NCBI GenBank assembly: GCA_014898415.1
Contig: RCTD01000008.1
Coordinates: 1,302,001 to 1,366,000, forward strand
DNA: 64,000 bases
From: Stromatinia cepivora
Lineage: Eukaryota; Ascomycota; Leotiomycetes; Helotiales; Sclerotiniaceae
Direction: 5' to 3'
Every line of letters starts with the position of its first letter. Positions within the stretch are counted from its first letter, which is position 1. Both the position numbers and the translations under genes were made by a program. The notes beneath the pieces are model-generated. The model saw nothing but the letters and a program-made list of their open reading frames with translations. It did not search any database and was not told the DNA's origin. Of this stretch, positions 30,041 to 54,440 are shown piece by piece.

Positions 30041-30591
30041 AGTCTAATACCCCACTTTCGGACCACCCCTAATTCGGATTACCTTAAAAAATTATATTGT
30101 TATAAATAATTTTATCTTTTTAATCTTTAATAATTCAATAATTATTGAATCAATTGATCTGAAATTTTGATATATTATTATTTATATAATACCAAATATA
30201 TATATCGAAGATAATACTTTTATAGTATTTGATATAATAGAAAATGGAATATTTATATATCAAATTAGTTTGGAGTATAGTATTTTATATATTATACTTT
30301 ATAATCGAATAAATAATTAATTATTTTATAAAAAAGGATATTAAAATATATAAAAGATGGTTTCGATTTAGAAAAAGAGATTGATAGATTGAATATATAT
30401 TCAAAAATCATTGAGTATTAGTTTTATATATTAATAGATAAGAAAGATTAAAAAGAATCTTTTCAAAAAAAAAAAAAACTTTTTATTTGGAAAAAATGGA
30501 TATATAATTGTTTGATTAGGAATCCTGAAATCAGAATTAAAAGATAATATAAAATCGATTTTGTTTATATTTTGAATATAATTAATGAAAT

Positions 30592-33500
30592 TGTGACGCA
30601 CAAGAGCCGTAGTAGAGCTGAATAAACAGGGTCAATTATGTTCTTTAGAATCTATAACTGAAGAATTATAGCTCGTAAAGAGCAATTAGATATATATATA
30701 CAAATACCTATTCGTAAACTGTAGGGTTATGCGTATATATTATTAGGGTCATTATTTTACTATACTAAATCATATAAATCATAATATATGTATACAAATG
30801 ATCAACTTATCAATAGATATGGGAGATAAAAAGTATTATATGGTTAGCCTTCTGTAATTTACGATTCGTAATATTATCCCCCCCTTCGGAAAAGCTCGCC
30901 CTCGAACGTTTCATTCTTCTGTTCCATTGTTATTTCATTGGAAATTAGGTTTTGTAAAGGTTTATAAGCTTTAAATCAATTAAATTGGTCATTTTGGTTG
31001 ATTTGATCAATTTACTGGAAATTGACCAAATTGATTAAATTAATCGATCAAATTGATTAAAATGATGAATGAATTGATTAAATCAATCAAATCATTTATC
31101 AATTGATTAAATTAATATTGATTTGTATTCTCCTTGATTTGGGGAATCTCTGAAAGGAAAAAGTTTCAATAGAAAAGGGAAGGAGGTTGAATTATAGTAT
31201 AATAATAATGGGTGGTTGATATAATCAATTCCGAAATCGATCAAATTAATCGATCAAATTGATCAAATCAATCAAATTGAACGAAATCGATAGGGGTGAT
31301 ATTATATTTCGTTCTTATCATATTTAAGCTTCCCTTTATATAATTTTTGAAATGATTATAAGTATAAGCTTTTGAAATATATTGCCTTCGTATTATCTTG
31401 GTGGTGATAGCTTATTTATTATATAGAATTCGGACCATGTGTGTATACGATCAAATTCCCTTGAATTTGTATGGGTTTTTGATTCTTTCATGATTGTATG
31501 TGTATATATTATTATAAAATTATAATATCTAATCTGTTATATTGAAGAATACTTTTCTTTTCCTTAGTTTTATGGGTGAATCGTTATTTATATGATTATA
31601 ATTATCCTTTCCGCTTTTATAGAGCTTTATCCAATCGATTAATCGATTAGGAGGACCAAATAATGTTGGATTGGCCAAATGAAAATCGCACAAGAAATGC
31701 AATAATGTTTTAAGATCGGAAGTAGGATACCAAATAAGATCGGTATCATTATTAAACTACAAGATTCTGTATAATAAGGTTTTTTGTATTTTCTTTACTA
31801 CTAGAACCTTTTCCATTTTCTATTCCGAATCATTAATTATATTAATAGGTGGAGGTGGTTCGAATATCTAATCAGGAAGAGGATCGTTATATATCTTGTG
31901 TAATCGATCTAAAGGGAAAACAGGATGAATTTTTATTGTAATTGGGAGTTCGAATTTAAAAGAGCTTCTAGATCGATTAATAATCTTGAATCTTTTTTGA
32001 ATTGGGAAGTCCAGCTTTTTGGATGATTTCTGGATAGGATAACTTTTCATATTGAATTATATATAATCTCTGATATTGAAATCAACCTTACACCAATGAA
32101 CATTCGTGGATTTCGATATCTTGATTTGGATATACAATAAGCCTTCTTTTGTTTGCGCGAAAGTTAATTTATTGTATTCTGTGTATATACAGGTATTACA
32201 TATATTTATATCGTCTGTTGGCTTATTAGTATCTTTCTTTTATTCCTATATATATTTCGATGTATATCTGTATAGGATTTTGTAGGGTGTAAGCCCTTCT
32301 AAGGAGTCGTATAAAAGAGTAAATTATACGTAATCCATTATAAATAGGAATTCTGATCAATCGTCTTAATAATAATTAATAAATAGTCTTAATCGCTATT
32401 AAAGGTATTGATTATAAATCTTAATTTGATTATCGGTTTGGGGATGGTGAGTAATGGATAATTTGAAATCGGTTTCTAGGATTTGGTTGAATTCCTTTCA
32501 GAATTGTGATATAAATTGGGGGTCGTAATCCGATATTATAATATTAGGGGGATTATAATATCGATATATATGGTAGAGATATAATTGTACTTGAGCTTAA
32601 GTATCGATTGATTTGTAATAAGGTATAGAAATAGTTTACTTTGTTAATCGATCAATAATGATTAAAATATTATCATATCTGTATTTATCCTTATTAAAGT
32701 TATAGTATTCTATAATGATATATTGCTATATTCAATTAAGAATCGAAAGTAAATACAATAAACCGGGGGTACGATTGTATAAAACGGAACTGCATTTGTA
32801 GGCGTAACAATTATATATATATCTGGTTATAGTATTGTGTATTCTGGGCCAATAGTATTGTTGAGATAATAAGAGGTAGGTTTTATTTGTATCAGGATGA
32901 ACAATGGAAATGGAATTATAGACTTCATGAATCAGGTAAATTTGAAGGTTGTCGATATCAGGCACTATTAAATGGTTATTATAAAACAAAAGATCATTTT
33001 GGAGTGATATATATTTATAACTTTGGATAGCTTGCATTCTGAATACTAATAAGCTATCTATAGTTTTATTTGCTTCGATGATACAATTAATTAAATCGAA
33101 TCAAGAAACGATTTCATTCAAATCGATATTAATAATTACTATTTCGTCTGAATAATACTTTCGTAAAACTTTTTTTATAATTTCGGTATCAATTTGATTA
33201 TCTTTAATAAGCTATTGAAGACGATTCTTCTTTTTAATATAATTCTGGAAATCCAACTCATCGATCCGATGGGTTAAAGCATCAACGAGAAAGTTATCTT
33301 TTCTAGAGCGATATATAATAATGAAGTTATAATCGGTTAGAACTTTTGTTCAGTAAATTTATCAAACGTTAAGAATCTTAGTAATCATGAAATATTCGAG
33401 GATCTTATAATCGGTATAAACCTTGATTTTATATAGTAAATCAGCGAGTTCTGTTCTCCAATAATTGAGAGATCGAATGATTGATAGCATTTCCTTATTA

Positions 33501-36500
33501 TGAATTTCGTAATTCAATTCAACAACAATTATGATCTTGGAGAAATAAATTACGGAAAACCAATCTTCGCTATACTATTATGATAACATATTAGCAATTA
33601 CCCCATCGGATATATCTGTTTCGAGCATACAAAGGAATTGATGATTATAATATTGTAAAAGCAGAACAAAGATAAGCTTTTTCTTCAAAATATTGAATGC
33701 GTTTTGGCATACTTCGTCGAATACGAATTTAATGTTTGTTTTAATAAGTTCGTTGAGAGGTTTCGCTATTATATTATAATTCTTAATAAATCATCAATAA
33801 AAATTACAAAAACTAAAGAATGATTGAATCCCTTTTATTGTTATCGGAAAAATCCAATTCTCAATTATCTCAATCTTTTCAGGATCCATCTTTATTCCTT
33901 TAATAAAGATAATAAAGCTTAAGTATTTGGTATATATAATATTGAATTCGTATTTCTTAAGATCCATTTGTAGATCAATGGTTTTTAATTGTTCGAGAAT
34001 TAGTTTAATATGAGTTTGATGCTTTTTTTCGTTTTTAGAATAGATTAGAATATTATCGAGGTATATTGTATAGAAGATATTTAAATAATTGAATAGAATA
34101 TCATTCATATAATACTAATAGGTTACAGGATTATTCGTTAATCCGAATGGTACAATCTTATATTTATATAATCCATATCGGGTTCGGAAAATAGTATACT
34201 TTTCCGAAGCAGGATCCATTTTTATATAATAGAAAGTTTGATGAATATCGAATTTAGTAAAGATTTTAGTATTGGAAAACCGAAAAAGCGTTTCATTAAT
34301 CAAAGGGAAGAGATACCGATCCTTATATATTAAGGAATTCAATAATTTGAAGTCTATATAGAACCTCAAACTATTATTGGGTTTCTTGACGAATAGGATA
34401 GGTACAATATAAGGGGCTTGACTAAATTCAATGAAATCTTTGCTGAGGTTATCCGTAATATATTCTTTGACGATTTCCAATTGTTCCAGGGATATCTTAT
34501 AAAGTGGATTATAATATAAAGCTTATTCTCCTTTGCCTTCCAATATGATTTTATGATTATAAGATCGGTTAGGAGGCAAGATATTTGATTTATACTTGGA
34601 AAAGATTCGATGATATTATTGATATTTAGATGATATTTCAGATTCTGAATTGATTTCGGTTAGTACTCTATCGAGTTTCTTTCGAATTTTTGTATTCTTG
34701 AATTCGATCAGGGCAATTAATATTCTCTTTTTTGTATATCATTTGTTCTATTGGAAATCTATTATATTATCAAATTCTTTCAAAGTAATGATAAAGAGTT
34801 CAGTTTGTTCATCTCTTTTGTATTCTAATTGGAATTTATCGGGTTTGAATATATATAGATCGAAGATTTCGGGCGATATATAGGGGAGGCATTTGTAGAT
34901 CTGTAGTAGTGGTATGATTGGTTGGAAAGGAGGTGGATTGAATTTGAAAGGAATCGGGACCTTTTCCTTTTCAACAAAAATCTGTATTATATTTATACTT
35001 AAAGATTCTTGTTATATATTATCAACTATAATTGATCTGTTTAGTTATAAATCTTTTCGATTCTAATATTCTTCGAACTAATCATCTTATCGATCAGTAT
35101 CTTATTAGGCTAATCGATTGATCTTCTGTTTACAAAAGGATAATTAGATAATGAGGAGATTATTCGAATAAAAGATGGTATAGGGTCTTTCTTTAGGTTA
35201 TTCAAGATGTTTATTGAAGTAATCGAGCTTCGTTTGAATCTTTGATAACCAAAGTCTATTTAAAATAATACTATAATTCCCTAATTCAATAATAAGGAAA
35301 AGAACAAAAGATTGTTTACAGTTATCGATTGTTAAATTAAAGAATATGAAATAGGTAATAGTATGGTTTTGTATACTATTATACTCTTTAACTTCAATTG
35401 AAGTTTCAAATAGTATAATTCTAAATTTAAATATAGGAAATAAACAAGTAAGGAGTATAGTATTAATAAAAGCGAATTCATTTGCTTTAAAGTCAATGAA
35501 TATTTTTGATTGATAAGTGTAATCATTTTTCGAAAGGTTGTAGGGGAGTGTAAATACTTCTTTTTCTATAAGTTTAGTTAGATCAAGAAATCTTATATTC
35601 TATATAGTACTTAGAATGGAAACGGAATCTAAATGTTTGATTTTAAATACTTTTCTTTTTCTAAATAGATATTCTATATAACTTCAATTATAACTTCTAG
35701 ATTGAAGTCTTTTTCGGCATCCTGATATTCTTTGAATTTTTTTGCTTTTTTTTGTATCGTTTCGATCTCATTGAAATTATCAATACAAAACATCGATATA
35801 CATACTACTCCAGAAAAGGGAAAGAGCGACAAACATTTAAAATTCGAATAATTATTGGATGCGACAAAGCCGGTGTATTTAGAAGGGGTATTTCAGAATA
35901 GAAATGGTTTTGGGAATGTAAAGGTTCCAAAATTGAAACTGTTAGAGCTCTGAAAGGATTGCAAAAGATTCGTAATAATTGTTGATTTGTAAATAGTTAT
36001 AAAGACTTTTCAACTAATATAATATTGGTTTCGTTTTTGTAATAAAACTTTGTTTTGATTTACTTTAATAAATATATTCATAAGTTCTTTTGTAATCTTG
36101 TAATCCTTAATAGATATTGCTACTATTCGCAAAAGAAAATCGGAAATCTTTTATTCGAGATCCCTGAATAGAATTTTATTATCGATAATCTCTGCTTGGG
36201 TAACAAGTAATCTGAACTTTCTATATTATTCTAGGAAATTGCTATATCAAATTGTATTAAGCATAATCCATATCTTGTATTGAAAGCGAGCATCATCGAC
36301 TTCGACCAGATTCCGATAGATCACTGCAAATTGTTCGACCAATTCGAATACTGTAAATCGGGGCATTCATACATAAAGAATATGACAATGTATTTATACT
36401 TCCAATTCGGTTTGATCGATTATATATGCACAATATTGCATTTCACTTTTAAATAATGTAATATACAGTTCGAATCGTTCTATAACCAATAATTGCTATA

Positions 36501-37635
36501 AACTAACTTTAGATTTAATACTATCGCTAAATTTAATAATAAGATTTGTAGGTTTTAGTACATATGTATCTTGCTGCGAATTATGACTGGCGTGGGAATG
36601 CAATCTTGATCAATTAGATTGGCTTCTTGAATAAGGGGACCCCTGATTATTAAATAGATCGTCATTTTCTGAAAGAGAAGGAGAATCTTTAGAGGGCCCT
36701 TAATGATCAGATCGTTTAATCAAAGTTTTCTTTTTCTGATTTCGGGATCTTCGGGTTTGCTTGGATGAAGGTCCTTGAATTTCGATTAAGAGAATAAGGG
36801 GAATCCCAGGTATTATTGTTGATCTGAATGCCTGTGTAAGCATTATTTGAAACTCAGAAGGAGGTTGCATTATTATAGAGCTTGTCGTCATTATAGCTTT
36901 CAATTATCGATTCTCCTTTTTCAAATTCATAACCATTATATAGAGATCTTGTAATTGTAATGATAATTCAGAAGAAGCAATTGAATTACTGAAAGCATCA
37001 ATTTCATATATTGGAATCTTCTCTTTACCAGTTTTCTTTCTTCCAATAATAACATTATTCAATCCTGTATTTATATTTTCTTCAAAGGGTTGTTGAAATA
37101 ATTGAGGAGAAGGAGAGGGTTCCTCAGAATATACTTTTGAAGGTTCGGAGTATACAGAAGAAGGAGTTCGTTGTATTATAAAAGTAATGGTACACTTCTA
37201 AAGATATTTATATCTTCATCGATTAGATCAGAATAGATCTTCTTCTTCTAAATGTAATATTTGTAAAAGTTCATCTAAGAAAATATTATTAAAGTAAGGT
37301 ATTATTTGGGAGACCACCAAATAGCCGGACACTTGTAAATGAGTTGTAGATAATATAATGTACAAAAACCATAATAAAGCTGAATAAACAAGATCAATTA
37401 TATTCTTTAGAATTTATAACTAAAGAATTATAACTCGTAAAAAGCAACTAAATATATATACACAAATACCCATTCGTAAACTGCGGGGTTGTGCGTATAT
37501 ATTATTAGGATTACCATTTTACCATACTAAATTATATGAATCGTAACGTATGTGTACGGACGATCAGCTTATCAATGGATGTGGGAGATAAGAGGTATCA
37601 CGTGGTTAGCCTCCTGTGGTTCACGATTCGTGACA
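30592..37635 (-). mobile_element. Ty3/gypsy LTR retrotransposon 1 (7.0 kb, RIP-decayed)
   Basis: LTRs of 282 bp each (30592-30873 and 37354-37635) are bounded by the 5-bp target-site duplication GAAAT (30587-30591, 37636-37640). The element reads on the minus strand: gag-side frame near 36900, reverse transcriptase at 34480-33794, RNase H about 33700-33250, integrase zinc-binding domain at 33037-32732, integrase C-terminus to about 31868. A purine-rich tract (minus strand AAGGGGGGGAT, near 30876-30886) abuts the 3' LTR. The RT metal-binding motif reads YLDN instead of YLDD, a G-to-A change. It belongs to the same family as the solo LTR at 25227. Confidence 0.92.
31868..36903 (-). pseudogene. 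Degenerate gag-pol of LTR element 1
   Basis: Discontinuous frames in gypsy order. RT: open pieces 34480-34115 and 34108-33794 show SQAPYIVPILFVKKPNNSLR, FTKFDIHQTFYYIKM, YKIVPFGLTNNPVTY and YLDNILIYSKNEKKH. RNase H traces (ETDISDGVIANM, RTELADLLYKIKVYTDYK) lie downstream. The integrase H2C2 region at 33037-32732 shows YLIHEVYNSISIVHPDTNKT and LLSQQYYWPRI. The last open piece, 32050-31868, contains KIHPVFPLDRLHK, typical of the integrase C-terminal region. Many stops come from C-to-T/G-to-A changes. No chromodomain was identified. Confidence 0.85.
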
Positions 37636-38161
37636 GAAATTATTTATAAATGATTTGAAAAATTGAATTTGTCTGACATTAAATATATCAAATCTAAAAA
37701 CAAATGGAATATAGATGAAGTAAGTATTATAAAAGATTAAGGTTTTAATAGATTAATAATAAAAAACTTTTAACAATATTTTATTCAAAAGAAATAATTG
37801 TTACGGGAGCTGCCTCTAGGGTCACGTGGAAATGGTTAGAGATCTTTCGAGGTGGTTTAGACTAGACTTCAAATAGGAATTCAATAAGGGTAATAACTAA
37901 TTGCAATTCTTGTAATTATAGTAATAAAACTAATGATTGTTTTTGAGTACGAAGTTTTATATTGTAATGAAATCTATTCCTTTATATAGATCTTCGTTTT
38001 TGGTTGTTTTATTGATTTTATTATATTTCATCAAATGGGAGTAATGGGATCTAGTGGGAATCTCTAATTCTATAACTTCCTAATCATATGATTCGGTATA
38101 TTGAATACTGTTGTAATATTATCCCTTTTCTAGTTTAGTATTTGTTCTAAATGTTTATAAA

Positions 38162-38767
38162 GTGAATTTCCTTCATTTGATTAATTCTATAATGCTTTCC
38201 TTTTTGTTTGTTATAATATCTATTATTCGTTTTTCAAAATCTATTGTTAATCGTAAAAATATTTATTTTCGTTTTAAAGATAAAGGTATTATTATGTTTT
38301 ATAAGTGTAGTTGCTGTTTGGAGAAGAATCTTGAGTGTTGGGTGTTTCCAAATGCTGTGTATTGTAATGAATGTATAAAGAGTGTGGGTAGTGGTTATTG
38401 TAATGTGTATAACTACTTTGCGAGTAATTGGTTTTGTATTAATTCTGAGGAAGAGTGCTTTGAGTTTGAGGAGGAGAAGGTTGTGAATGCTATAATTGAA
38501 GTAGTTGTTCGGTTGGCTTGTCTGCGAAGGCAGAAATATGTTTTGCGGGAAAAGGTTGGTAAAATGCTTCAATATGATCTTTATACTATTGAAGCTTTTG
38601 AAGAGTTTGAAGCTGAAGAATAGTGATTGGAAAATGAGTGTATTGAGAAGGAAAAGGAGTTGGCGTTTGTTTCTGCTGCTGGTTTTAACGATGGTTCCTT
38701 TGTTTTCGATTCTTCTTTTTTTTTGGATCCTTCGATCCTGACTTTAATGGATTCTCCTTCCTTCTAG
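38162..38767 (+). pseudogene. Antisense accessory ORF in LTR element 2, double-CxxC protein
   Basis: A frame antisense to gag-pol, just inside the 3' LTR: open from 38162 to a TAG at 38621, immediately followed by TGA, then open again to TAG at 38765-38767 (201 codons, two in-frame stops of the RIP type). The natural start may be the ATG at 38294. From there it shows CSCC-x5-C, CNEC-x6-C spacing (a cysteine-cluster zinc-binding look), then a Glu-rich stretch and LRRQKYVLREKVGKML, a helix followed by an acidic segment. This pattern resembles a family of small Cys-rich/coiled proteins common in ascomycete genomes near gypsy elements (from memory, unverified). Much less RIP damage than the surrounding pol. 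It could be a captured host gene or an element-encoded antisense protein. Confidence 0.6.
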
Positions 38768-39944
38768 GCAAATCCGGGTATTGCTGGTAGAACGCCTTCA
38801 ATTTCTCAGGGCAGTTGAGATTTGTTCTTAATTCCCATAAATTTTCAGTATATGAATAATCTAATTATTTGATCAAATATTTGATTATGCTTTTGATATA
38901 TTTATAATCTAATATTGTTTCAATATTGTATACGGTATTCAGGTTGACTGGTTCGATTTCCGTTAATGGCACATTCGGTGTTTCTGGTGGTACTAGTTCG
39001 AATAAGGATATATGAAATACTAAATGGATATTCATTGTATCTAATAGTTTTAATCGATAATTGATAGTTCCTATTACCTTATCAATTTTGAATAATCTTA
39101 GTTTCCTATGATCGAGTTTATTGTTTAATCTTTTGGTTTCGATGTTTCGTTGTAATAAATAAACTTTATTCTTCTATTTAAATGTAGATTCTATATTATA
39201 TTTTGTATTATAATAGATTGTTGTTTTGGATAATATAAATCTTAGATCAAAAGCAAATTGCTTTTATAAATCCTTTAATTGTTCGATTTGTATTATTATT
39301 AATTCAGTATTAATTTTCTGTGATATCAGTATTTGATATATTTTAGGATTGAATCCAAAGTTAATGTGTATTGGTGTAATCTTTATGGCTTCTGTTTCTG
39401 ATATATTATATACGAATTGTATTATAAATAATAGTTCTATTTAATTGTTTTATTGATAATTTATGTAGTATTTAAGATATACTTTTATTATCTGATTGAT
39501 TCTTTCTATTTGATTATTTGTTTATAAATGAAAAATTGTTGATAGTTTTCTTTTAATATTCATTAATGCTAATAAAGTAGTCCAGAATTTCGAAGTAAAG
39601 AATTTATCTTTGTTCGAGATTATTTTATTTGGTATTTCATATATGTTTATTATGATTCTAAAGAATATATATACTAATTATTTAATAGTCTATATTTTTT
39701 TGAATAGTATTATATATACAAATTTTGTTAATCTGTTTATTACATTGAATATAGCGTTGTATTCAATTTCTGTAGTAGGATCTTTTGAGAATGGTAATTT
39801 GATTACAAAGTCCTATATAATAGATTTTTATAATTGAAAAGGTATATTTAGGGTTTGGAGTTGATTATATAGAGCATATTGTAATGATTTGTTTCATATA
39901 TAGGTATTACAATTTCCAACAATTTTTTCGATTATCGTTTTTAT

Positions 39945-42900
39945 TTACAGAAAGTAATTCATTTCCTGTATTCTTGCAAATGTCCTTGCAATTCCTTGAT
40001 ATCTATGTATAGGCAATCTATATTGTTCTGTCATAAATTCCTTGATCATTCGATTAGGAATATATACTTTCCTATGGAAGTATATTATATCGTTTTCCAT
40101 CGTGAATCCTGGTTTTGTTGTTTTGAGTATATGTATTATTATAATATTACTTTTATAATACAATTGGATCTTGTTCTTTAGATGGTTATCTTTCAAAATA
40201 TAAGTGGTTGTGAATTGCAGTGTATTGTAGATCAGTGATTCGTTTTCCTATTTGAATATAGTGTATAATTCATATAACTTGTTTTCTTGATATTCCGGTT
40301 TTCGATTGAAAATATTAATTCTAATGTTTTCTGATCCTTTGATATATAAAATCTTGAAGTTGTAATTAGTTATGATTTCCGATTATCTGATCTGTTGTTT
40401 GTTTAATTGCTTTGTTGTAGTGAAATAAACCAAGTTCTTATAATCTGTGTATATTTATATTATATATTTTGATTCTTCTAAATATATTTATTATTCTTTA
40501 AACACATCGATTATCGCTAGTAATTCTTTGTTATATATTTCATAATTTAATTCGGTTGATGATAATTTTCGAAAGTAGAATGCGATTGATTGATATTTCT
40601 TATTCTGATCTGGTTGGTTCAGAACTATTTTTATAACGAAATCTGAGGAATCCATTTTTATTATGATTTGCTTTTCTAAATCAAATATTAATAGTATTAG
40701 TTTTCCGATTATTATCTGTTTGAGTATATCGAATGATTCCTATATTTTGTTGTTTTATTCGAATATTCCTTATTCTTTTCTAATTAAATTGATTAAGAGT
40801 ATTGTAATCCTTGAATAATCTTTAATAAATCTTTAATAAAAGTTAACAAATCCTAAAAAAGATTATACTTTTTTAATTATAATAGATTACTTTCATTCAA
40901 ATATTGTTTTAACTTTATCCTTATTTATCTTGAACTTTTAATTTGATATAATGAATCCTAGAAACTTTGTTTCTGTAATATAGAATTCATATTTGTTTAG
41001 TTTGTATAGTAAATCGATTTTAGCCAAATATTCGAGAATGTTATTGATATCTTTGATATATTGAACTTCGTTATTTGAATATACTAGGATATTATCTAAA
41101 TAGTATATACAACAAATATCTAAATATTGTGATAGTATATTATTTATAAGCCTTATAAATATTGCTGATATATTAATTAACTCAAATAGTATAACCTAAT
41201 ATTTGTATAACCTGTATCTAGTTTTGAAAACGATTTTCTATTTTTCGCCTTCTTTCATTCTAATCAAATAGTATCTATTACATAAATCTATCTTAATAAA
41301 TATCATTGTTCTGTTTAATCGATCTTTTAATTCCATAATTAATGGAAATAGATATCGATCCTTTTTGATAAATACATCAAGCTTTTTGTAATCTACAATT
41401 AATCTTTTAGTATCATCCTTTTTGGATATTTATATAATTGGATTTGCCATTTGGGATATGGATTCTTTGATCCATCCCTTAACCAAATTATCATTAATAT
41501 ATTCTTTAAGCGTTTTTAGTTTATCAATTGATATTGAATAAATTAGAATATATACAAATATCTTACTATCCTCCAATATTATCTCGTAATCCTATAACTT
41601 GTATTCTGATAAAGCTTTATGATTCTTTAATTCTTTAAAAATATATTTATATTTTTTATATTATTCTAATATTATAGGCTCCTTTGTCTCGATTACGATT
41701 TTGTGTTATATTATTGGTTTTTACATTTATAAAGGAGGTATATTGTTTTTTGTTTTTAATAAAGGATTCTGGATTGGGTGTTCTATATTGTTGATATTGT
41801 TCGCATTCAATTCTCCTTGGTATATATTACATTTCGTAGATATCTTGAATATATCATTGTGATTGTTCTTATATTGATCAAATGTTACTGTTTCTTATGA
41901 TCAATTTATTTTTGAGTTATGTATCTTTAATTATAATATCCCTAAGATGATCTGTTATTGATCCAATAATACAATATCAAATTGTATAATCTTTGAATAT
42001 TGGATTATGCTTATTCGTATTAATCATATTTCTTAAGAAACATTCCTATCAGATTCTGTTAGCTATCAATTAATTGCAATTGATAAGATTCTTGTTTCTT
42101 TTAAAATAGAATTCTTAAATATTTTGCAGCTTTTAGTATAATAAAATTCTTTATAGTTTTTGAATCTATTATGGCTGGTTGTGTTTATCTATTTATCTTG
42201 ATTCTGTAGTATATCTGTTCTGTTTGTTCTATAATATTCAATTGTAGTGTAATTTACTCATTATTATGATCCTGGATGATTTCGTCGATAAATGTTATAT
42301 ATTATGGTTCTTCTTTTTCTAAATAAATTATATTCATCCTTGATCTAGTTTTGTTATCGAGTAAATCTCTTTATAAAATGTATCGATAATTCCCTTGAAT
42401 TATTCTTATTATTATATCTATAACTAATAATGGTAGGATAGCCTGAGTTTAGATATAATATTCTTTTCCGATTTTTCTATATAAAAATAAGTTCTGGTTT
42501 CCGTTTTGCTCGAATATATGTTGATAGAATATTTCCTATAGTTCTTTTTATTCTGATTATTGGAGATATTCTCCATTAATTCTTTCTATAAATAAAATAT
42601 TAGTGGTAACTCCAAATCATAGAATTCGGTGTTGATCGATATACCGAATTTCATAAGATTCTCCTTCTTTAATGTTTATTATATTGAGATCCTCATTGAT
42701 AATTCCTTTATCAATATCTATAAATTTCCAGATACAATAATTCCATTGATCAATTTCTTGAATAGATCATAATTTTTCTAACTATAGATCTTTATTTTCC
42801 TATAAAAGATTTTCTATCTTTTCTTCTTTTAGCTTTTTTTTATAAGCTAATGATAGTATAACTAATCTTGTAATACTGATTACATATAATTGTAATATAA

Positions 42901-43879
42901 AAATGATATTAAGTTAGCCTTTACCGAATTTATTCTTAAAATTGCCCTTCCTTCTGTTTATCTTCTTGCTTTAGCAATCTGCTGTCCGATACCCTACTTT
43001 TCTATATTCAAAGTATAAATTGTTGTTTTGTTTTCGTTTCTTTTCCTGATTATCATCCCTATTGGTATAATACATAGCGTCTAGTTTTATAGGATCTTTA
43101 TATCTCTATGAATTATAATATAATCTGCCCTCATTTTTGCGATAACACCCTTACTTTTGGTTCCCTTGGGATTTGTATAATCTCTAGTTTTATCGATATC
43201 AATAAAAACGATTATCTGATTCGATAAAATCCTGGATTAGATTGTTCAAATCTTCATTTGTTATAATTCTTTCTAATTTTAATCTAACTTTTGATTTGAG
43301 TCTTTTTCGATAATGATTTATAATAACGGTTTCGTTTTAATTGGTTGTTTTTATATATCATCGAAATTCTGTAGTATATTTCAATACTGATCCTATTTAT
43401 TTGAAATTGAAGATCTTTTCTTCTGCTATTTTTAACTCATTGGAATTTCCGAAGATTCTGTGGATTTCTGTCTTAAATCCTTCGAAATTGTTGAATATTA
43501 TTTGTATAGATTGTATACAACCCTGATCAGCATATTCGAAATAATTATGTAAATATAACTGGATCCATTTGGTTGCTTCTCCTCAAAGGTATAATATAGT
43601 TTATATATTTTTGGATTCTATGATAATGAATTTATCTTTATTGAATTTGAAGTAAATCTTTAATTATAATAAAAAGATATCGAATTCCTATTAACTATTT
43701 TGATATTTGTTTGGTAAAGCGATCTTGAATGTTTCGTTAATAGTGATTTCCTTAGGAGTATCAATCATTTCGATATCATCGATATCGGCTGTTGGTACAG
43801 ATTGGCCTGAATTAGTATCTTTGGGTACTATATCATCGATTAATATTGAATCAGTATTTGAAATAGAAATGATATTCAA
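39945..43879 (-). pseudogene. Degenerate gag-pol of LTR element 2
   Basis: Gag-side open frame 43879-43691 (acidic, Ile/Asp-rich). A CCHC knuckle at 43015-42974 reads Y-x2-Y-x4-Y-x4-C: three of four ligands lost by G-to-A/C-to-T changes. RT traces around 41900-40900 include YYLDNILVYSNNE and KYEFYITETKFLGFI. The integrase zinc-binding part at 40196-39945 reads VYIPNRMIKEFMTEQYRLPI, then HRYQGIARTFARIQEMNY. No intact enzyme is possible. Confidence 0.8.
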
Positions 43880-45835
43880 AGTATTACAGGAACTGTCTTT
43901 AAGGTTATATAAAAATGGTTAAAGATCTTTCGAAATGATTTAGATTAAACTTCAAATAGGAATTCAATAAAGATAATAATTGATTACAATTCTTGTAACT
44001 ATAATAATGAAACTAATAATTGTTCTTGAATACAAAGCTCTACATTATAATGAAACCCATTCCTTTATATAGACCTTCGTTTTCGGTTGTCCTATTGATC
44101 CTATCATATCCCACCAGATAGGAGCAATGGGATCCAATGGGAATCTCTAATCCTGTGACTTCCTGATCATGTGACTCGGTATGTTGGATGCCGTCGTAAC
44201 AATAGTTTAGTTTAAGAATTTGGATCTTTTTTATCGAATATATTTCAGCAATCAGTAAAGCGTTTTTTTTCTTTGTTATTTATAAGGGTTCGAATATATA
44301 ACAATAATGATTCTTTATAGATTTTATTTTATATAAGAATTGGAATTTTATTATAATTGAAAATGGATGAATAAATAATAAAACAATTCTTGAATAATTG
44401 AAAAAGTGTTATGGTTGTTGGAAGGATGTTGCTAGTAAAGCTAGAAATCTCTATAAGGAAATGATTTCATTGTTAAAGGTCAGTGTATAATTAATAGTCT
44501 ATTATCGATTAATTAGAAAACTCTATAAAATCTTTGTATTTATTAAATTCTAATATATAATTAATAATTTATTATTATTTTGATATTATTCTTTATTAGA
44601 TTTAAAAGAAAAAGGTTTTTTTAATTAGAAAAGGATAATGAAAAGTTTTATAATTGTTTTAGGATTAATTGATTCTTTATTATTTATAATTCTAATAATT
44701 CTTTTTATTTTATTTTCAGGAGTAATTCGTTAATTAATCATTATCGGTATTTTTTCAAATAATTATGATAAGAATAAGAAGTACTCTAGATTTATTGATC
44801 AATTCAAATGCTTTGCAAATTCGAGGGGAAAATATATCGAAGATTTAAAGCGGTAATGAAAATAAGATATCGATACCAAATCATTAATTTATTATATAGT
44901 TTAAAATAGAATTAATATAAAGATTCGAAAATATATAAAAGAAATTCGAAATCTTTAAATCAGAAAATCAATAATAGATTGAGAAAACCTTTGTTTGTTT
45001 TATATAAGAAAGGGTAATTAACTCGTTAATAGTGATTACTAATAATAGGGAAACAGTATCCAATTCTATTCTAATTCCTTAAAGAAAACCTTTGAAATTT
45101 CAAAAACTTTTATTTTATAAGGGTTTTATTATTATAGAAACAAAAGACTTTTTCTTTCAAACTGAATTTATATTTCGGAATAATAATGAATATTATTTTC
45201 TGATAAATCAAAAGAAAATAGATCATATTATTCAATATTTCCAAAAACAATCTTTTGCAGTTTAATATCGATATAAAAACAGGACGATGGATTTTAATAT
45301 AATATAGAAAAAGTTTAGGGAATATATATATAATATAATATTAGACAAAAGTAATTGTCAATATTTGATTATATAATAAATAATCTATACCAAATAATAA
45401 TTTGTATAAAGTATAAATAGTTTTATGGTATACTTTAATAGTTTAAAAGAGAAGATTGAATCGAAGATGGATAATATTCAAAAAAAACATTTTTTAGTAG
45501 ATCTACTTTTTTATATTGTAAAAAGAATTTTGGAATTATTTTAATAATTAGAAAATAGAAACGAATTAATCAAGCAAATATATTATCTAAAGAATATAAA
45601 TAGAATATACTATACAATGGATCCTTTCGATATATTTTGTAATCAAAAACAAAATAATCCTTTTATATAATTTAATCATTCTTTTAATCTCCTTTAAAAC
45701 AGGTAATCTCAGAAATAGAATAATTCATTGCCAATTAGTAGTATATAATTATAGCTTCAATATTCCAAATCTCTCTTTACAGAAAAGAAGAATAAAGGAA
45801 CTTCGAAGGAAAATTATCGAGAATGGGAACTATGG

Positions 45836-48800
45836 TGTTTCTATTGCCAACAATTGGGTTATTATTCGAAAAGATATATTAATCTATATATTTATCGATA
45901 ATGTAAAAGCAATTATTTATCTTATATTTATTCTATATATCCTTTATAAGATAAAAATTAGGGAAATACTATAATTCAATAATAACTTTAACCATTCCAA
46001 TGATTTTGAATCCTCAATAAAAAGAATATATTATCCTAATTATCAAAACAAATTTTAAGATCAACAATACTCCGATGAAGATGTATTGTTTTATCAATTC
46101 CGAAGTGCAAATTAATATTATTCAACAAAACAAATATATCGAATAGGATTGAACCCCTGATTCCGGTAAAGGTTCTTCATTAATATTAGCTAATAATATT
46201 AGTATACCCTTTTATGGTAATTATTAATTCGCTATCGAAATAATAAACGAATATAAAGAAAAAAGGATGTATACTTATCAATTCATTATTGCTATTCTAA
46301 ATCTATCAGGAATCGATACTATCCTAAAACTATTTTGGCTTTAAATAGTAAATCCTGATATTGATTGGCAATCGATTTTGTTTTATTTCAAATCTGTATT
46401 ACAAAATCTCGAAATAGTAACAATTAAGAAATTGTATAAAGAAATAAAGGTTGGGATCAAAATCTATATATTATTATCTAAAATCTAATCAACTATAAAA
46501 GTATTATCAAACTTCAAGAATATTTTTATATTATTATTTTTGTAAATACTTTTTGAATATAAGGAATACAAGGAAACTTTTTTAGAAAATGAAAACAGTA
46601 TACTATTCGATTATTATTTGATGAAATATTATATTGATCTCGAATCTAGATTAACCCTTTTTTAGAGATCAATATATATTCTTTCGAAAAAGGAATTAGT
46701 GATTCTATAAAAATATTTTAAAGAATATTAAAAGAAAGATTGGATTTATCATTCAATTAGTTCTACTGGAATTTTGATTATATTTATTCCAAAAAAAGGA
46801 GATGGTTATTGATTATACATCGATTATTATGATTTTAATAGAATTATAAAAAAGGACTATACCCTTTTACCCCTAATTAGTGAATCGTTAGATCACTTAA
46901 AGCAAAAGGTCTTCTTTATAAAACTCAATCTTAAAGATATATATTATTGAATATATATATAAGAAAACAACAAATAAAAAATGATATTCTATATTTATTA
47001 TAAATAATTCGAATATCTAATTATATCTTTTGGCCTGATCAATACCTCTACTACCTTTTAAATATATATCAACCAAATATTCATCGGTTTTGCAGATAAT
47101 ATTTGTATTATATATTTTGATAATATTCTTATTTATTCTAAAGATAGGGAAATCTATATTATTAATATCCGCAAAATCTTTATTAGATTGTTTGAATATA
47201 AATTCTATATTAAATTAAAGAAATATATATTTTATATATACAAAATGGAATTCCTGGATTTTATTGTATTAAGGAAAAACATTATTATAAAATCAAGCAG
47301 AATTCAAATCATTATTGAGTGATTTGTATTGATGTTCTTTCGTGAAGTTCAAGTCTTTTTAGACTTTGCGAATTTCTATTGATAGTTTATTATAGTTTAT
47401 TTACGAATTGTTTATAATTTAATAAATCTATTATAAAATATCAAAAAGGGAAAAGTTATATTGAAATTCAAATAGATAAAAAAGGCTTAAAGTATCTTTG
47501 ATAATTTAAAAGAAGTTTTTATTACAATATTGATACTCCGACATTTTGATTCAATATTCTGAATCCTAATCGAAATTGATGTTTCTAAGTTTATATTAGA
47601 ATATATACTCTTTTAATTGTTTTTTGATAATACAAACAATTTTATTGTTTTTCGATGGTATTTTGTTGTTTTCTATTTGCGGAAGCTTAATTTAGTAGAA
47701 TAAAGGTATTTTATTTATGATTAAGAACTTTTGGTTATCTATATGGTTTTTGTTTAATAGCAGTATTATATTATAAATAATCGATATATTATTATAATCA
47801 AAACAGATTATAATAGTTTTCAATACTTTATAGAAAAAAAAGAATTCAATGGTAGGCAAATATAATAGACCGAAGTTCTGGTCATTTATGATTTTATAAT
47901 CATATATAGATCGGGCAAATTAAATCCTGTCGACAGTTTATCGAGATGATCAGATTACGTAGAAAATATAAATGGTATTAATGAAATGTTATTTATATTA
48001 TAAAATAAGTTGAAAAGTATTATGATAATAGCCGTAATTTTCTTTCTTTCGAAAGTAAAAACGGAATCCTTGCGGAATATTATAGGCCTTTTTTAACAGA
48101 AGGGGTATAGCTTGCCCTTACGCGATTCTGAAGGATTATTGGTAAGAATTAATTGTAAATAATCGATACTATATTGGATAGTTAATATATTAGTTAACGA
48201 TGAAACAGTATTTGAATTAATATCGAAGTTAATGAAAAATGCTTTGTTATAACTTCAAGAGAATAACGATTTTATAAAAAGCAAGGAGTATTTGAAGTAT
48301 CGATATAATTCAATTGGAGATACCGTATTTTGGAAAGTTGATATCGATAGTTTGCTCATTTATAATAGATATGTTTTTATATTATCAGATAGAGTTATAA
48401 AGGTCGAAATCTTGAAGATCTATTATAATAATCTTATAGGAGATTATTGAAGTGTTAAGAAAACCTAGGAGATATTGAAAAATAAGTATTTCTGGTTTAG
48501 TATAATAAAAGATATGAAAAAGTATATATGAATATATATTATCTATTAGTAAATAATTATAAAGCATTATCAACTTTATAACGAATTATAAACCTTATTA
48601 TTCTTTTTTAATTTTTAGAAAGAAATAATAATGGATTTTATTATAAATTTATCTTTTTCAAAGATAGATAAATATATATATAATATTGTTTTTATTGTTA
48701 TCGATAAATATATAAAATTCATTTAATATATTTTAATCAATAAAACAATAATTTTATTCAAATTAGCAAAAGTTTTGTTTCGATATATTTTTAAGGATTT

Positions 48801-49660
48801 CGATATACCAAAGAAAATAATTTTAGATCGAGGATTATAATTCGCAAATAAATTTTGGGGGAATTTGTTTTTTTATTTAAGAATATATTGCAAATTATTG
48901 ATAGTGTTTCATTTACAAACCGATAGTTAAATAGAATGACAAAACCAGAATTTAATTTATTATATTATATATTATACTAATTGAAGATAAGATGATTAGG
49001 TATCGTTATTATCCCTAACAGAATTTATTTATAATATAATATAGTATAATATAATTGGCAAAATATTCTTTAAAACAATATATGGATATCTGTTTATGTT
49101 TAGCTATATCGATAAAGATATCGATACCGAAGGGAAAATATCTGTTATACAAGAATATATCGAATCATTAAATCAGGAAAGGGCAAAGCTGGCAGAAATT
49201 TGGAATAACTCAACAAAAAAGAGATTGAAGAATAATAAAGATTTACTTCAGCGATTCTATATCAATAATAAGATTATACTCAATACTAAGAATATCAAAT
49301 AATTATAATCCAAAAAGAAATTCTCCGATTATTTTATAAACCCTTTTACTATTACCAATATCAAAAATAATGAACAAATATACGAATTAGTACTTTCAAT
49401 ATCATACAAAATATATAATGTCTTTTATATCTTGTTATTCGAACCATAATTTGAATGCGAAGATACTATCGACCCCCTATCTCCTGAAGAAATTGAAAGA
49501 TATATAGAATATAAAGTTGAAAAAATATTAGCTTATAAAAGAAGAGGACAAGGAATACAATATTTAGTATAATGGAAAGGCTATTAGTTAATAGAAGATA
49601 TATAGGAAGTTTTACGAAACTTAATATATATCAAAAGGCATTTGGAGAATTATAAAAAAG
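45836..49660 (+). pseudogene. Degenerate gag-pol of LTR element 3, with chromodomain
   Basis: CCHC knuckle CFYCQQLGYYSKRY (His and last Cys replaced by Tyr). The protease site reads INSE in place of the usual IDSG. RT shows IPKKGDGYWLYIDYYDFNRI, PLISESLDHLKQKVFFIKLN and IYFDNILIYSK. Integrase: NNLIGDYWSVKKTWEILKNK with YFWFSIIKDMKKYI, then MDFIINLSFSKIDKYI, VIDKYIKFI, ILDRGLQFANKFWG. The C-terminus has EYKVEKILAYKRRGQGIQYL, then a stop, WKGY, stop: a chromodomain with RIP-type nonsense codons. A 68-codon open piece (49096-49302) with IQEYIESLNQERAKL lies between integrase core and chromodomain. Confidence 0.88.
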
Positions 49661-50600
49661 AAAATATATCGTTATTATAATAATAGTGAAAAACAAAGAA
49701 ATAATATTATCAAAATATATTACAAAGACAAAAGGGATTCATATTTATATTAGAAAATTAGGATACTTATATTTAAAAATCCTTATATAATCAATTTACT
49801 TTAATAAATTATTACAAATACATTATCTTCATTTCATTATCAAATATTTGTACTTCCTTTATTTTTTTATCTTCTTCCTCAATAACTTATTCTTATCTAT
49901 ATTATCCAAATCCTCATTAATATCCGATTCTATCGATTGATAGAACATTCATCGAATATATTTTTCAGTAATAGGATCCCAATAGGAAATTCGTGGAATT
50001 GTTATAAAAACGAATATAAGGGGAGATTTAATTATATTTTATAATTGAAATTTGAAAGATCTATTAATATTTAATCATCAATTAATTAAATTCAAATCAT
50101 TATATTTGTTATATCGATTTAGAAATTTTTTCACTAATTGATTATACTTATTTAGAATAGTACTTATATTATTATTACTGGAATCCTCCAAAAGATCGAG
50201 ATTTTTAGTTTGAGCTATTGATTTCTTTATTGCAGGCATTATTGATTTCATTAAGACTACCAACAATTCTCGATGGATAATCGATAATGTTATATTGATC
50301 TTAGAAACTGGATTTAGTTTATCAAAATTTGTCGGAAATAAGAACGGTATATTAACCATTGAAGTTTTTTCCTTTTTAAATTTTTTAAGATTTGATGATT
50401 TAGTATTAGATTGTTGTAGATTTTTGTCATCGTTATTAAGAAGTTCAGCCAATTTCGACACTTTTCTTTTAATAAAAACCGATTTGGAAACTTTCCCGAC
50501 AAGTTTCGTTTTGATTATTCAAAGCATAACAATCCGTAATTTTTTTGTTGCCATTTCATCAATACTTTTGATACTTTTAGTCTTATCTTTAGCTATCTTT

Positions 50601-52276
50601 TGTCACGAGATACACGTGATCGCGTACGATCGGATTAGTACAGTACTAAGTTCCGAGCCGATCATATATATAACTTTGTAGCATACTCTCTTTAACTCTA
50701 TAATTTTTAATTCTAAGATTGATCTCTAAACATTCATTGGGTTTGTTATATTATTAAAAGCTCTTTCAGATAAGAAATGGAATAATATATGCTTATACTT
50801 ATATACACTCTGCTTACTTCTATTCTAGATATATACTTATACTCATTCATTTGTATATAGATCTTTTTGATATTATTCAAAAATATTATCTTTTTTCTTA
50901 CCCTTAATTTCTAAGCTATAGATTACGATTCGATAAACCTTACGATTACAGAACTTCGTAGCGAAATGATTCATCAATAAGATGAAATCTCGTTCTTATG
51001 TTCTCTGATTCTCGAATACACTTTTGCTGCTTATACTCCTTCTCATCCGAAACCCTTTCTCCCTGATCCTGAAAAGTTCAATAATAGTTCTCAAAAGTTC
51101 AATACCTGGTTTCCTTCGATTCGAACAAAACTACAAATAGACGGCGTTGCGATCAGCAATTCTATAGTTCAATTTTATTATATTTATTTCAATTTCGAAT
51201 CTCATATACAAATTATGGTATTACTTCAGTTTTCTTCTTTTGATCAAAATGTTCCCTTAAATTATACAACGATCCTAGATCAATTCATATATGTTTATAA
51301 TAATCCAAATAAAGTTCAAAAAGTTAAAGATAAATTATTCATTTTCAAATAAGGAATCGATTCTTTATATACTTATATTACAAAATTCGAAAGAACTCTT
51401 TACAAAGTCAAAGATCAGAATTAACCTGATTCAAATAAAATCTCAACCTTTCGCAATGAATTCAATGTTACTCTTAAAAATTATCTTTCTCAACAGTTTT
51501 CTCTTCTCCACTTTTATCCCGACTTTGTTCAGGTTATATAACAACTAATTATTCGTACAACGAATGGATTCCTTGTATTATCCTATTCTAATAAATCTAG
51601 AGCCCCATATATATTACAGAATCCATTCTATTTTCGGAACTACAATCCAATAGATATTAACAATCTTAATATCATTAATACCTTTAGCCCTTTTGATACC
51701 CAATCGAATAAACCTAATTGTACTTTGATTCTATTTTGCATATGAATACCCGAGTTTTCCCCTTCTAAAAGAATTCTTTTATATAAACAAAATAAATGTA
51801 TACGATATAGAAATAATTTTCATTGAATACGAATATATCCATTAAACCCATATCAAAGAATCCGAGATCAATAAAAGCTTATACCGATTATTATATTGAC
51901 TATTGAACCCGAAAACGACAATGATAAGGATCTTGGAGAGATAATCAATAGCCGATATTTTGAAGATCATTTAAAGGAAGCAAATAGTATAATAGATATA
52001 TATTCGTTGGCTATAATACAATCCATATATCAGGAATTTTTATCAAAAGAAGATTAATGATCATTTTGTACTTAAATTATTCATTTAAAACAAATTCGAG
52101 GCGAACTTTTCAAAAGGGGGGAATAGTGTTATAAGATACATATAATTATGTACAATCGGACTAATACAGTACTAAGCTCCGAGCCGATCATATATATAGC
52201 TTCGTAGCACATTCTTTTTAACTCTATAGCTTTTAATTCTAAGGTTGATCTCTAAACGCTCGTTGGGTTCGTCACA
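50601..52276 (+). mobile_element. Short gag-only LTR element (1.68 kb), nested in LTR element 3
   Basis: Two 150-bp LTRs (50601-50750 and 52127-52276), starting TGTCACGAGATACACG and ending GGGTTCGTCACA, are flanked by a perfect 5-bp target-site duplication TCTTT (50596-50600, 52277-52281). A purine tract AAAAGGGGGGAATAG precedes the 3' LTR. The interior carries a degraded gag and no trace of protease, RT or integrase, so mobilisation must have been in trans. It fits the idea of terminal-repeat retrotransposons with GAG (TR-GAG) described in plants. Confidence 0.88.
50940..51560 (+). pseudogene. Gag remnant of the short LTR element
   Basis: One frame with a few RIP-type stops reads HPKPFLPDPEKFNNSSQKFN, TWFPSIRTKLQIDGVAI, QFYYIYFNFESHIQIMVLLQ, TILDQFIYVYNNPNKVQK, SLYTYITKFERTLYKVKDQN and ISTFRNEFNVTLKNYLSQQF. 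This is the capsid-like region of Ty3/gypsy Gag as found in fungal elements (LR/KLxIDG, QFYYVYxNLxSHVQxMVLPQ, YIxKFERxL). No zinc knuckle or protease follows. Confidence 0.8.
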
Positions 52277-54071
52277 TCTTTCGATATATCGATTTTACTA
52301 ACAAAATATAAACAGATTTCAATGATCGAATCAGAAAAGCTTTAAGGATTTTTTCTTCATCGTCCTCATTAATAGTATCCTTCAATTCATCATCACTCGT
52401 TAATTTATCCATCGATTATTAATATAATTATACAATTATTAACAAGAAATATAATAAATTATACCCAATATACCGATAAAATATCATTACAAATCCATAC
52501 ACATCTCCATCAATTTCATTAATTTCTTTACCTATATATTTAATACCAATACAGCTTCCTTTATATCATAAAATAATTATATCAAATTATATTTCTTTTG
52601 TTTACAAAGAAAGATCTTTATCCTCTATATAAATTTAATTTACCGACCCTCCAATTTCCCTAACAGTATAATCTCTTCCAACGAATCTACTTCAACCGTC
52701 TACCATTTGTAACAAAACTATAACAAACGATTTATCACAAAATTAACATTTTCTAATAATACTACACAAGGTTTCTTTTTTCGGATATATTCTATACATA
52801 CTAAATCAAATCCTTTTAGAAAAAAGTATTCCTTATTTATTATCTCTTCTTTAAACAAAAATTTTATATTATTATAATAAACAATATATTTAATATAACA
52901 AAGGTATATTGGATATATAAATTACAGAGATATACAAACCAAACATACTATCAATTCAGAAAAAGATTGAAATATAACAAAAAGAATAACAAAAAGTTTT
53001 AAGATATAATATCGCAATTATAACATTGAAATATGAAATTTCGAAAATGGAATTCCAATAAATTCATATAGTTTTCAAAGAATAAACTATATATATTTTT
53101 GTTATTATTATTATTATTATTTATCTCTTTATTTATAACACAAAAATCATCATATATTGTAACCGTTTTATCGATCAACGACTCCCTATAATTACAAATA
53201 GACCAACAATTCACCAACTTTTCGAAAACGAAACCTCAAAGAAAAGATTCTATTATAATTGTTGAAAGGATATTATTAATAAAGTTAGAAATCTTTATAA
53301 GGAAACAACTTCATTGTTAAAAGCCAACATACAATCGATAATCTATTATTAATTGATTAGAAAATTCTATAAAATCTCTATATTCATTAAATTCTAATAT
53401 ATAATCAACAGTTTGTTATCATTCCAATATCACTCTTTATTGGACTTAAAAGAAAGAGATTTTTCTAATTAGAAAAGGATAATGAAAAGTTTTATAGCTA
53501 TTTTAGAACTAATTGATTCTTTGCTATTTGTAACTCTGATAAAAAGGTCTTTATACCTCAAACAGCCCTTTTCTAATTGAAGGAAATTAGATTATTCATT
53601 TTGAATGATTATGGGAATCACGAAACCATTGAATTTATAATGGAATATTTCAAATATAATATATATCTTTTATTTTTATTGTTATATATATTATATATAT
53701 TATAATCATTAGATTTATTAATATTCTTGTTTTTGAAAAACAAATATAGATATCATTTCAATAAATTAGATTCTTTATCAAATTTTATACTAATTGAAAA
53801 ACATAGTTTTCTTGAATACTATTAGAAAATAAGAATAAAAGGTTTAACAATCTATGATATCAAAAAGAAATAAAAAACTTCAGATTTATAATCTCAAAAT
53901 TGTATTAAATCTTTTCTATTTAGATTATTATTTGAAAATAATAATAAGGAGGTTATTATTGAAAATCCTTTTTCAAATAATAATTCTATATTTTAATGGA
54001 ATAAGGAAATATCTTTTATTGAATGAAAGATTCTTCAAAAAGCAAATGATATTCGAAAATATATCTATATT

Positions 54072-54380
54072 ATGATTCGAAAAAAAGAAATTGATCTTTC
54101 AACTTGTCGATTACTTTTTCGAAAAATTTCGAAGGATTTTGATACTAAGGATTATATATTTATACTATTAGAATATCGAATAAAACAATTAGAATTCAAA
54201 TTGGAATATATTATACCTAAGAAAAGAAGGATAATTCGGATTAATCCGAATTCCAAATTTGCAAAAATTAAAATTATTCGAAAGGCACAAATTCAAATTG
54301 GGGATTGTGAAATTGATAAGAATGATTTTAATGATGATTATAAAACAGATTCTACAAACGATTGTATTGTAATAGAATAA
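54072..54380 (+). pseudogene. C-terminal transposase remnant, Fot1/pogo copy B
   Basis: A 102-codon open piece near the right end of copy B. It contains LEYIIPKKRRIIRINPNSKF followed by AKIKIIRKAQIQIGDCE, matching the C-terminal tail of Fot1/pogo-type DDE transposases (basic KR-K-x-NPN-x-KFA-x-I then I-x-AQ). Upstream pieces such as 53854-54075 belong to the same decayed gene. The catalytic region is not readable. Confidence 0.65.
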
Positions 54381-54440
54381 TTATTGAATTATTAAAGTTT
54401 AAAATTCATATAATAATTTTTTTAAGGGTGGTCCAAGACT

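What the first reader, a model, noticed from the sequence alone, without database searches (positions are those of the whole stretch)
30041..54440. Four-level nest: DNA transposon hit by three LTR elements, one of them hit again
Four pieces of copy B (551, 158, 200 and 894 bp) line up end to end with the uninterrupted copy A. The gaps are exactly three LTR elements with target-site duplications GAAAT, ATAGT/ATAAT and AAAAG, and the third holds a fourth element with duplication TCTTT. The order of events is readable: host gene, pogo, three gypsy insertions, then the short gag element. Three hits within 1.8 kb suggests targeting to silenced DNA.
Basis: seen in the sequence. Interest (0 to 1): 0.75.

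Follow-up and report, generated by a model that had tools for sequence, protein, structure and literature searches.

The report
Repeat-killing mutations stop near element ends
A pile of mobile elements nested inside each other in an onion-rot fungus is real, and the mutations that disabled each element fade out over roughly the last hundred bases at both of its ends, which lets the order of insertion and mutation be read and hints at recent sex in a fungus described as asexual.

Summary
Such nests are ordinary in fungi. The mutation pattern is not. Each window LTR pair differs only by transitions, and the mutated partner switches along the LTR: the element's outer ends are spared. The 29 further pairs I could form agree: in all, 33 of 33 pairs, 1200 transitions, 0 transversions in 6860 sites; 207 changes in outer halves, 993 in inner halves. 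Mutation is near zero within 30 bp of an end and half-maximal at about 100 bp. Four young DNA-transposon copies agree, so LTRs are not needed. The change is RIP-like but nearly context-free. In the window the host elements are not spared at junctions, so they were mutated before being hit; elsewhere a small drop is seen. The genome matches Stromatinia cepivora, called asexual in print. Best reading: RIP acts well inside uninterrupted homology and struck here at least three times. Homology-end versus element-end is not settled.

The parts
30041..30591 (+). pogo copy B, piece 1 (551 bp)
   Evidence: TA at left end
37641..37798 (+). pogo copy B, piece 2 (158 bp)
44207..44406 (+). pogo copy B, piece 3 (200 bp)
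53547..54440 (+). pogo copy B, piece 4 (894 bp)
   Evidence: TA at right end
30592..37635 (-). E1, Ty3/gypsy element (coding strand -), LTRs about 280 bp, TSD GAAAT; LTR pair 50 transitions, 0 transversions
   Evidence: RVT_1, RT_RNaseH, Integrase_H2C2 over cut-off
37799..44201 (-). E2, Ty3/gypsy chromodomain element (coding strand -), LTRs 320 bp, TSD ATAAT/ATAGT; 62 transitions, 0 transversions
   Evidence: RVT_1, RT_RNaseH_2, SH3_Tf2-1 over cut-off, half a Chromo domain below it
44407..53541 (+). E3, Ty3/gypsy-like element (coding strand +), interrupted by E4, TSD AAAAG; 53-54 transitions, 0 transversions when the alignment stays within the LTRs
   Evidence: RVT_1 fragment below cut-off, chromodomain-like stretch by eye
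50601..52276 (+). E4, 1.68-kb LTR element with a gag-like frame, TSD TCTTT; 26 transitions, 0 transversions between its LTRs
55601..57437 (+). pogo copy A, uninterrupted, TA duplication, terminal inverted repeats; young subfamily with spared ends
   Evidence: DDE_1 just over cut-off
25227..25533 (-). solitary E1-type LTR, lightly mutated
   Evidence: (aligned from 25248 only)
54668..55666 (+). stop-to-stop frame of annotated gene EAF04_004321, whose last 21 codons are supplied by the end of pogo copy A

Best explanation
The nest grew in steps. Pogo copy B inserted and was hit by a RIP-like process that turns C into T on both strands of repeated DNA. E1, E2 and E3 then landed in the already mutated B and were mutated in turn. 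E4 landed in the already mutated E3 and was mutated last. The process works on integrated copies that share homology with other copies, and it needs homology to continue for roughly 100 bp or more on both sides of a base. Near the point where homology stops, which is the element's end, bases escape. Shown: transition-only divergence; spared ends in 33 of 33 LTR pairs and in four copies of a DNA transposon; unspared host sides of the junctions in this window; independent mutation of each of 21 E4 copies. Inferred: that homology pairing defines the spared zone, that the enzyme is a RID/DIM-2-type methyltransferase, and that each round was a sexual cycle.
For: Window LTR pairs: E1 50, E2 62, E4 26 transitions and no transversions; the mutated partner switches along the LTR, Mann-Whitney p 4e-8, 5e-9, 1e-4 and 2e-4 for E1, E2, E3, E4. 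Elsewhere: 20 of 20 E4 loci and 9 of 20 E2 loci fetched gave LTR pairs, and all 29 show the pattern. Pooled 33 pairs: 1200 transitions, 0 transversions, 207 outer vs 993 inner, 33 of 33 in the same direction (binomial p 2e-123). Distance: E4 1/630 and E2 2/319 mutated sites below 30 bp, 0.40-0.46 deep inside; fitted half-distance 102 bp. Across 21 E4 copies the mutated fraction per 25 bp runs 0.007, 0.11, 0.21, 0.34, then mostly 0.3-0.6, and falls to 0.09 and 0.02 at the far end. Four young pogo copies, no LTRs: 0/32 in the 16 usable columns of the first 50, 0/56 in the last 25 columns, 0.34-0.52 in 200-column interior bins. Two solitary LTRs with matching 5-bp flanks, mutated mostly in the middle. 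E4 copies carry similar loads (0.38-0.47 in 19 of 21) and share no mutations by descent, maximum residual correlation 0.10. Host sides unspared in the window: E3 14/27 within 30 bp of E4, pogo B 34/76 within 40 bp of a junction.
Against: I could not separate 'end of homology' from 'end of element': no copy known to be truncated before mutation was found. Unspared host sides fit earlier mutation of the host but also fit a rule tied to element ends. In seven other E4 insertions, pooled host mutation near the junction is somewhat lower (62/284 within 60 bp vs 196/682 beyond 100 bp, uncorrected p 0.03; within 30 bp 30/133, p 0.17): noise, or partial sparing from a later round; either way the 'host mutated first' reading is not clean outside the window. 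An alignment of the E3 LTRs running past the element end gave 2 apparent transversions; with exact ends there are none. The nearly context-free spectrum is not that of classical RIP. [quoted passage not shown]
Confidence: 0.66

Rival explanations
1. Linker model: the two LTRs of one element pair with each other, and mutation centres on the stretch between closely spaced repeats, fading outward through the LTRs.
For: [quoted passage not shown] It predicts the inner bias.
Against: Pogo copies have no LTRs yet show spared ends and a mutated interior (four copies). The effect is alike for E4 (1.4 kb between LTRs) and E2 (about 5.8 kb). The interior of E4 shows no overall gradient.
Confidence: 0.1
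2. Element-end model: something bound to or specific for element ends, or a chromatin boundary there, protects about 100 bp regardless of homology.
For: All spared ends seen are element ends; host sides of junctions in the window are not spared.
Against: Five element families, LTR and TIR, share the effect (E1 and E3 rest on one pair each). The flanks are AT-rich in all 33 pairs, so the ends are not borders with gene-rich DNA. Two solitary LTRs are spared at both edges, although recombination between LTRs explains that too. The small drop beside E4 elsewhere would speak against it if real.
Confidence: 0.2
3. Ordinary ageing: LTR differences are neutral mutations since insertion, as LTR dating assumes.
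For: None beyond the divergence itself.
Against: 1200 transitions and 0 transversions; direction depends on position in the element.
Confidence: 0.01
4. Premeiotic methylation in all contexts (MIP-like) followed by deamination of 5-methylcytosine, rather than direct RIP. It does not exclude the homology-end rule.
For: Mutation is nearly independent of the 3' base: CA 0.48, CC 0.40, CG 0.40, CT 0.39.
Against: Zero transversions mean it was fast; slow deamination would leave time for other changes. ApC is preferred (0.54 vs 0.33-0.38).
Confidence: 0.2

Closest known systems
Repeat-induced point mutation (RIP), Neurospora crassa and relatives
   Same: C-to-T and G-to-A changes in repeats, both strands, AT enrichment; cytosine methyltransferase genes are present, one RID-like by recalled motifs
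   Different: Almost no CpA preference, composite RIP index negative in all 32 window bins, and a measured spared zone of about 100 bp at ends
RIP-like signatures of Botrytis cinerea and Sclerotinia sclerotiorum (PMC4352252, passages read)
   Same: Same family of fungi, C-to-T in repeats
   Different: There CpA and CpT signatures are reported; here all four 3' contexts are hit nearly alike
RIP on LTRs of crapaud in Podospora (PMC10787394, passages read)
   Same: LTRs of full copies mutated, solitary LTRs mostly not
   Different: The passages shown explain solitary LTRs by small size; no outer/inner gradient within LTRs appeared in them
Methylation induced premeiotically (Ascobolus; recalled)
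   Same: Context-free action on duplicated DNA
   Different: Ends in mutation; methylation not testable here
Fot1/pogo DNA transposons
   Same: TA duplication, terminal inverted repeats, DDE_1 fragment
   Different: Copies broken by mutation
Ty3/gypsy chromoviruses; TR-GAG non-autonomous elements (recalled)
   Same: E1-E3 pol pieces and chromodomain remnants; E4 has LTRs, 5-bp duplications and gag
   Different: TR-GAG is recalled as described in plants; E4 is a fungal case with 437 first-look candidate places

Membership tests
RIP | C-to-T / G-to-A transitions in repeated DNA | tested here: met
   1200 transitions, 0 transversions in 33 LTR pairs
RIP | CpA preference (classical RIP) | tested here: not met
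   CA 0.48, CC 0.40, CG 0.40, CT 0.39
RIP | Genome carries a RID-type methyltransferase | tested here: inconclusive
   PF00145 in C20 without stops, motifs as recalled for RID/Masc1; class not tested by tree
RIP | Acts in the sexual cycle | not testable with these tools
   needs crosses; one MAT alpha-box frame without stops exists
MIP | Cytosine methylation of duplicated DNA | not testable with these tools
   no methylation data
Fot1/pogo (Tc1-mariner) | TA target duplication and terminal inverted repeats | tested here: met
Fot1/pogo (Tc1-mariner) | DDE transposase | tested here: met
   DDE_1, 22.5 bits against cut-off 22, in one frame of copy A; gene broken; no hit in the copy B frame tried
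Ty3/gypsy chromovirus (E2) | RT, RNase H and C-terminal chromodomain | tested here: inconclusive
   RVT_1, RT_RNaseH_2 and SH3_Tf2-1 over cut-off; Chromo E 5e-4 but below cut-off, over half the domain
TR-GAG (E4) | LTRs and gag, no pol | tested here: inconclusive
   Retrotrans_gag 29.8 bits over cut-off in copy L040, below it in L034 and L042; absence of pol inferred from the 1.38-kb interior, not searched frame by frame

The most novel reading that the evidence does not exclude
Mutation by this RIP-like system requires about 100 bp of uninterrupted homology on both sides of a base, so every repeat keeps an unmutated collar at each end that records the footprint of homology pairing. Because the collar forms only at ends present when mutation struck, nested elements become a relative clock of alternating transposition bursts and mutation rounds. 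In Stromatinia cepivora that clock shows at least three rounds, the last with no transversion since insertion, which points to recent hidden sex in a fungus described as asexual.
Probability: 0.4. Interest if true: 0.8.

Novelty: new variant of a known kind. Interest (0 to 1): 0.62.

Why it matters
If general, LTR pairs are a self-controlled assay of homology recognition: the same sequence sits at two distances from an end in the same nucleus, so no laboratory construct is needed to measure how far recognition must extend. It invalidates LTR-divergence dating here and shows that standard RIP indices can miss heavily mutated DNA. It leaves unmutated references at element ends. It makes the question of hidden sex in an 'asexual' plant pathogen testable from sequence.

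Tried and rejected
Dating by LTR divergence: rejected, no transversions. Classical CpA RIP: composite index negative in all 32 bins of 2 kb and contexts nearly equal. One-strand deaminase editing of reverse transcripts: rejected, both C-to-T and G-to-A occur. Host gene interrupted by B: not supported. Re-mobilisation of mutated E4 copies: no two of 21 share mutations by descent. A first pogo profile had two copies in the wrong orientation and is discarded; one search replaces it. Pfam found nothing useful in the four E4 frames of the window copy that I tried. ARAGORN found no tRNA, Rfam one. Searches used provisional piece limits a few bases off, and copy B cut 16 bases short at its right end; the exact limits are. 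Literature: ten searches, seven on RIP (two found no paper) and three on the organism. I saw passages of ten papers (PMC4858203 with its section 11, PMC7296669, PMC10787394, PMC3158057, PMC3256194, PMC12543289, PMC11969663, PMC4352252, PMC5004834, PMC7882544), none whole. No report of spared repeat ends measured on LTR pairs appeared in them; most subscription papers are not held, so this is weak evidence of novelty. PMC7882544 (passages) holds that RIP in apparently asexual fungi probably reflects ancestral activity or cryptic sex.

Full report
WHAT IS THERE. Copy A (55601-57437) aligns with four collinear pieces of copy B, and the gaps are three LTR elements with 5-bp duplications; the third holds a fourth. 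Pfam finds RVT_1, RNase H and integrase zinc-binding pieces in E1, RVT_1, RNase H, SH3_Tf2-1 and half a chromodomain (below cut-off) in E2, a weak RT piece in E3, and DDE_1 just over cut-off in pogo A. Chromodomain-like stretches in E1 and E3 are by eye. E4 carries a gag-like frame: Retrotrans_gag reaches 29.8 bits, above cut-off, in another copy, L040, and stays below it in L034 and L042.

ORGANISM. The genome is 55.7 Mb in 48 contigs. A protein of the window matches EAF04_004323 of Stromatinia cepivora at 98% on a contig of 1,811,081 bases, the length of the window's contig. PMC3158057 (passages read) calls this fungus, under the name Sclerotium cepivorum, asexual.

THE MUTATION PATTERN. In the window the LTR pairs of E1, E2 and E4 show 50, 62 and 26 transitions and no transversions. 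For E3, 53 transitions and no transversions were counted when the alignment stayed within the LTRs, 54 and none with exact ends; a version running past the end showed two apparent transversions. The mutated partner switches along each LTR: near the element's outer ends the LTR base is intact and its partner, lying deeper inside, is mutated. The switch is less sharp in E3 than in the others.

IS IT GENERAL? I fetched the 20 best matches of the 39 other E4 copies listed (itself a capped list), and 20 loci from the E2 LTR hits, eight of them chosen because two hits lay near each other and the rest mostly from the top of the list. All 20 E4 loci and 9 of 20 E2 loci gave LTR pairs. Of the 11 E2 loci left out, 4 look like 5' LTRs, 2 like 3' LTRs, and 5 had no recognisable interior beside them. 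All 29 pairs show the pattern (one-sided p at most 0.01 in each). Pooled with the window: 33 pairs, 6860 sites, 1200 transitions, 0 transversions, 207 changes in outer halves and 993 in inner halves. Target duplications are exact in 20 of 20 E4 copies and in 7 of 9 E2 copies, with one mismatch in the other two.

DISTANCE SCALE. Rates from an outer end: E4 1/630 below 30 bp, rising to 191/478 at 125-150 bp; E2 2/319 below 30 bp, 307/672 beyond 250 bp. A saturating curve fits far better than a flat rate (negative log-likelihood 2406 vs 2924) with half-distance 102 bp. Sites mutated in both partners are invisible in this method, so inner rates are low estimates; using the spared outer copy as reference gives 407/979 = 0.42.

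NOT AN LTR EFFECT. Copy A and three close relatives differ by 12-14% transitions and 0.05-0.22% transversions. Mutated fractions are 0/32 in the first 50 alignment columns (only 16 columns usable, because one copy lacks its left end), 10/52 in the next 25, 0.34-0.52 in the 200-column interior bins, 7/64 in the last 50 to 25, and 0/56 in the last 25 columns. Only four copies of this subfamily were used.

CONTEXT. With the spared outer copy as reference (below 30 bp), CA 116/243, CC 53/134, CG 176/442, CT 62/160; a preceding A raises the rate to 177/326 against 0.33-0.38. PMC4352252 (passages read) reports CpA and CpT signatures in Botrytis and Sclerotinia. No 2-kb bin of the window passes both RIP-index thresholds quoted in PMC5004834 (passages read; values); two bins pass the TpA/ApT threshold alone.

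ORDER OF EVENTS. If ends are spared when mutation strikes, a host element mutated after being split should be spared beside the insert. In the window it is not: E3 has 14/27 informative sites mutated within 30 bp of E4 and 74/177 beyond 250 bp (five other E3 copies as reference; p 0.40). Pogo B has 34/76 within 40 bp of a junction and 123/340 beyond 90 bp (two relatives, one of them only for piece 1; p 0.19). So B was mutated before E1-E3 landed, E3 before E4, and E4 last: at least three rounds. This assumes the homology-end model. In seven other E4 copies sitting in E1, E2 or pogo, pooled host mutation is 62/284 within 60 bp and 196/682 beyond 100 bp (uncorrected p 0.03; within 30 bp 30/133, p 0.17), against a single reference. 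That is far from the near-zero rate at element ends, so those hosts too were largely mutated before being hit. The small drop is either noise or partial sparing from a later round, which the homology-end model would predict.

BURST AND INDEPENDENT MUTATION. Twenty-one E4 copies are 1674-1675 bp as cut for alignment, with pairwise transversions 0.5%. Their mutated fractions are 0.38-0.47 except L031 (0.30) and L038 (0.52), and no two share mutations beyond chance (maximum residual correlation 0.10). These copies came from nearly identical unmutated parents and were mutated afterwards, to a similar level in each, as if the process limits itself. Zero transversions in 6860 LTR sites bounds transversion divergence at about 4e-4 (rule of three, my calculation).

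TARGETING. All 66 flanks of the 33 pairs have GC at or below 0.38, and 15 of 40 flanks of E4 copies hit an element of this window. This fits insertion into silenced repeats, but loss of insertions in genes would look the same. My chance estimates for three hits in 1.8 kb rest on assumed insertion counts and an assumed 22-Mb target.

MACHINERY. PF00145 finds a methyltransferase within a 1485-codon open frame (C32), one in C20 with RID-like motifs as recalled, two more stretches without stops (C4, C8), and one in C24 with stops inside a matched stretch, which an intron could explain. One MAT alpha-box frame is open. Neither proves sex; PMC7882544 (passages) reads RIP in apparently asexual fungi as ancestral or as cryptic sex.

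LIMITS. Copies were picked by similarity to the window. The mechanism behind the spared zone is inferred. Literature coverage is partial. [quoted passage not shown] PMC7296669 (passages) speaks of leakage into flanks, which is the opposite.

Noticed in passing
window 55601-55666: The last 21 codons of annotated gene EAF04_004321 come from the spared end of pogo copy A; the Sclerotinia nivalis relative ends about where A inserted.
   Followed up: partly
window 50601-52276 and L027-L046: E4 is an LTR family with a gag-like frame and strikingly constant length in the 21 copies seen, with 437 first-look candidate places; its autonomous partner was not identified.
   Followed up: partly
window 24771-24882 and 23541-23652: An Rfam tRNA match (minus strand) and a related 112-bp sequence 1.2 kb away that Rfam did not list; an E1-type solitary LTR lies about 350 bp from the tRNA.
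   Followed up: no
window 63326-63540: A minus-strand match to the E3 LTR near the window end, partial or solitary.
   Followed up: no
window 28453-28529 and 28799-28876: A 77-78-bp direct repeat, 90% identical, 346 bp apart.
   Followed up: no
window 58619-59650 (-): Gene with DUF3716, related genes in Botrytis and Sclerotinia; used to identify the organism.
   Followed up: partly
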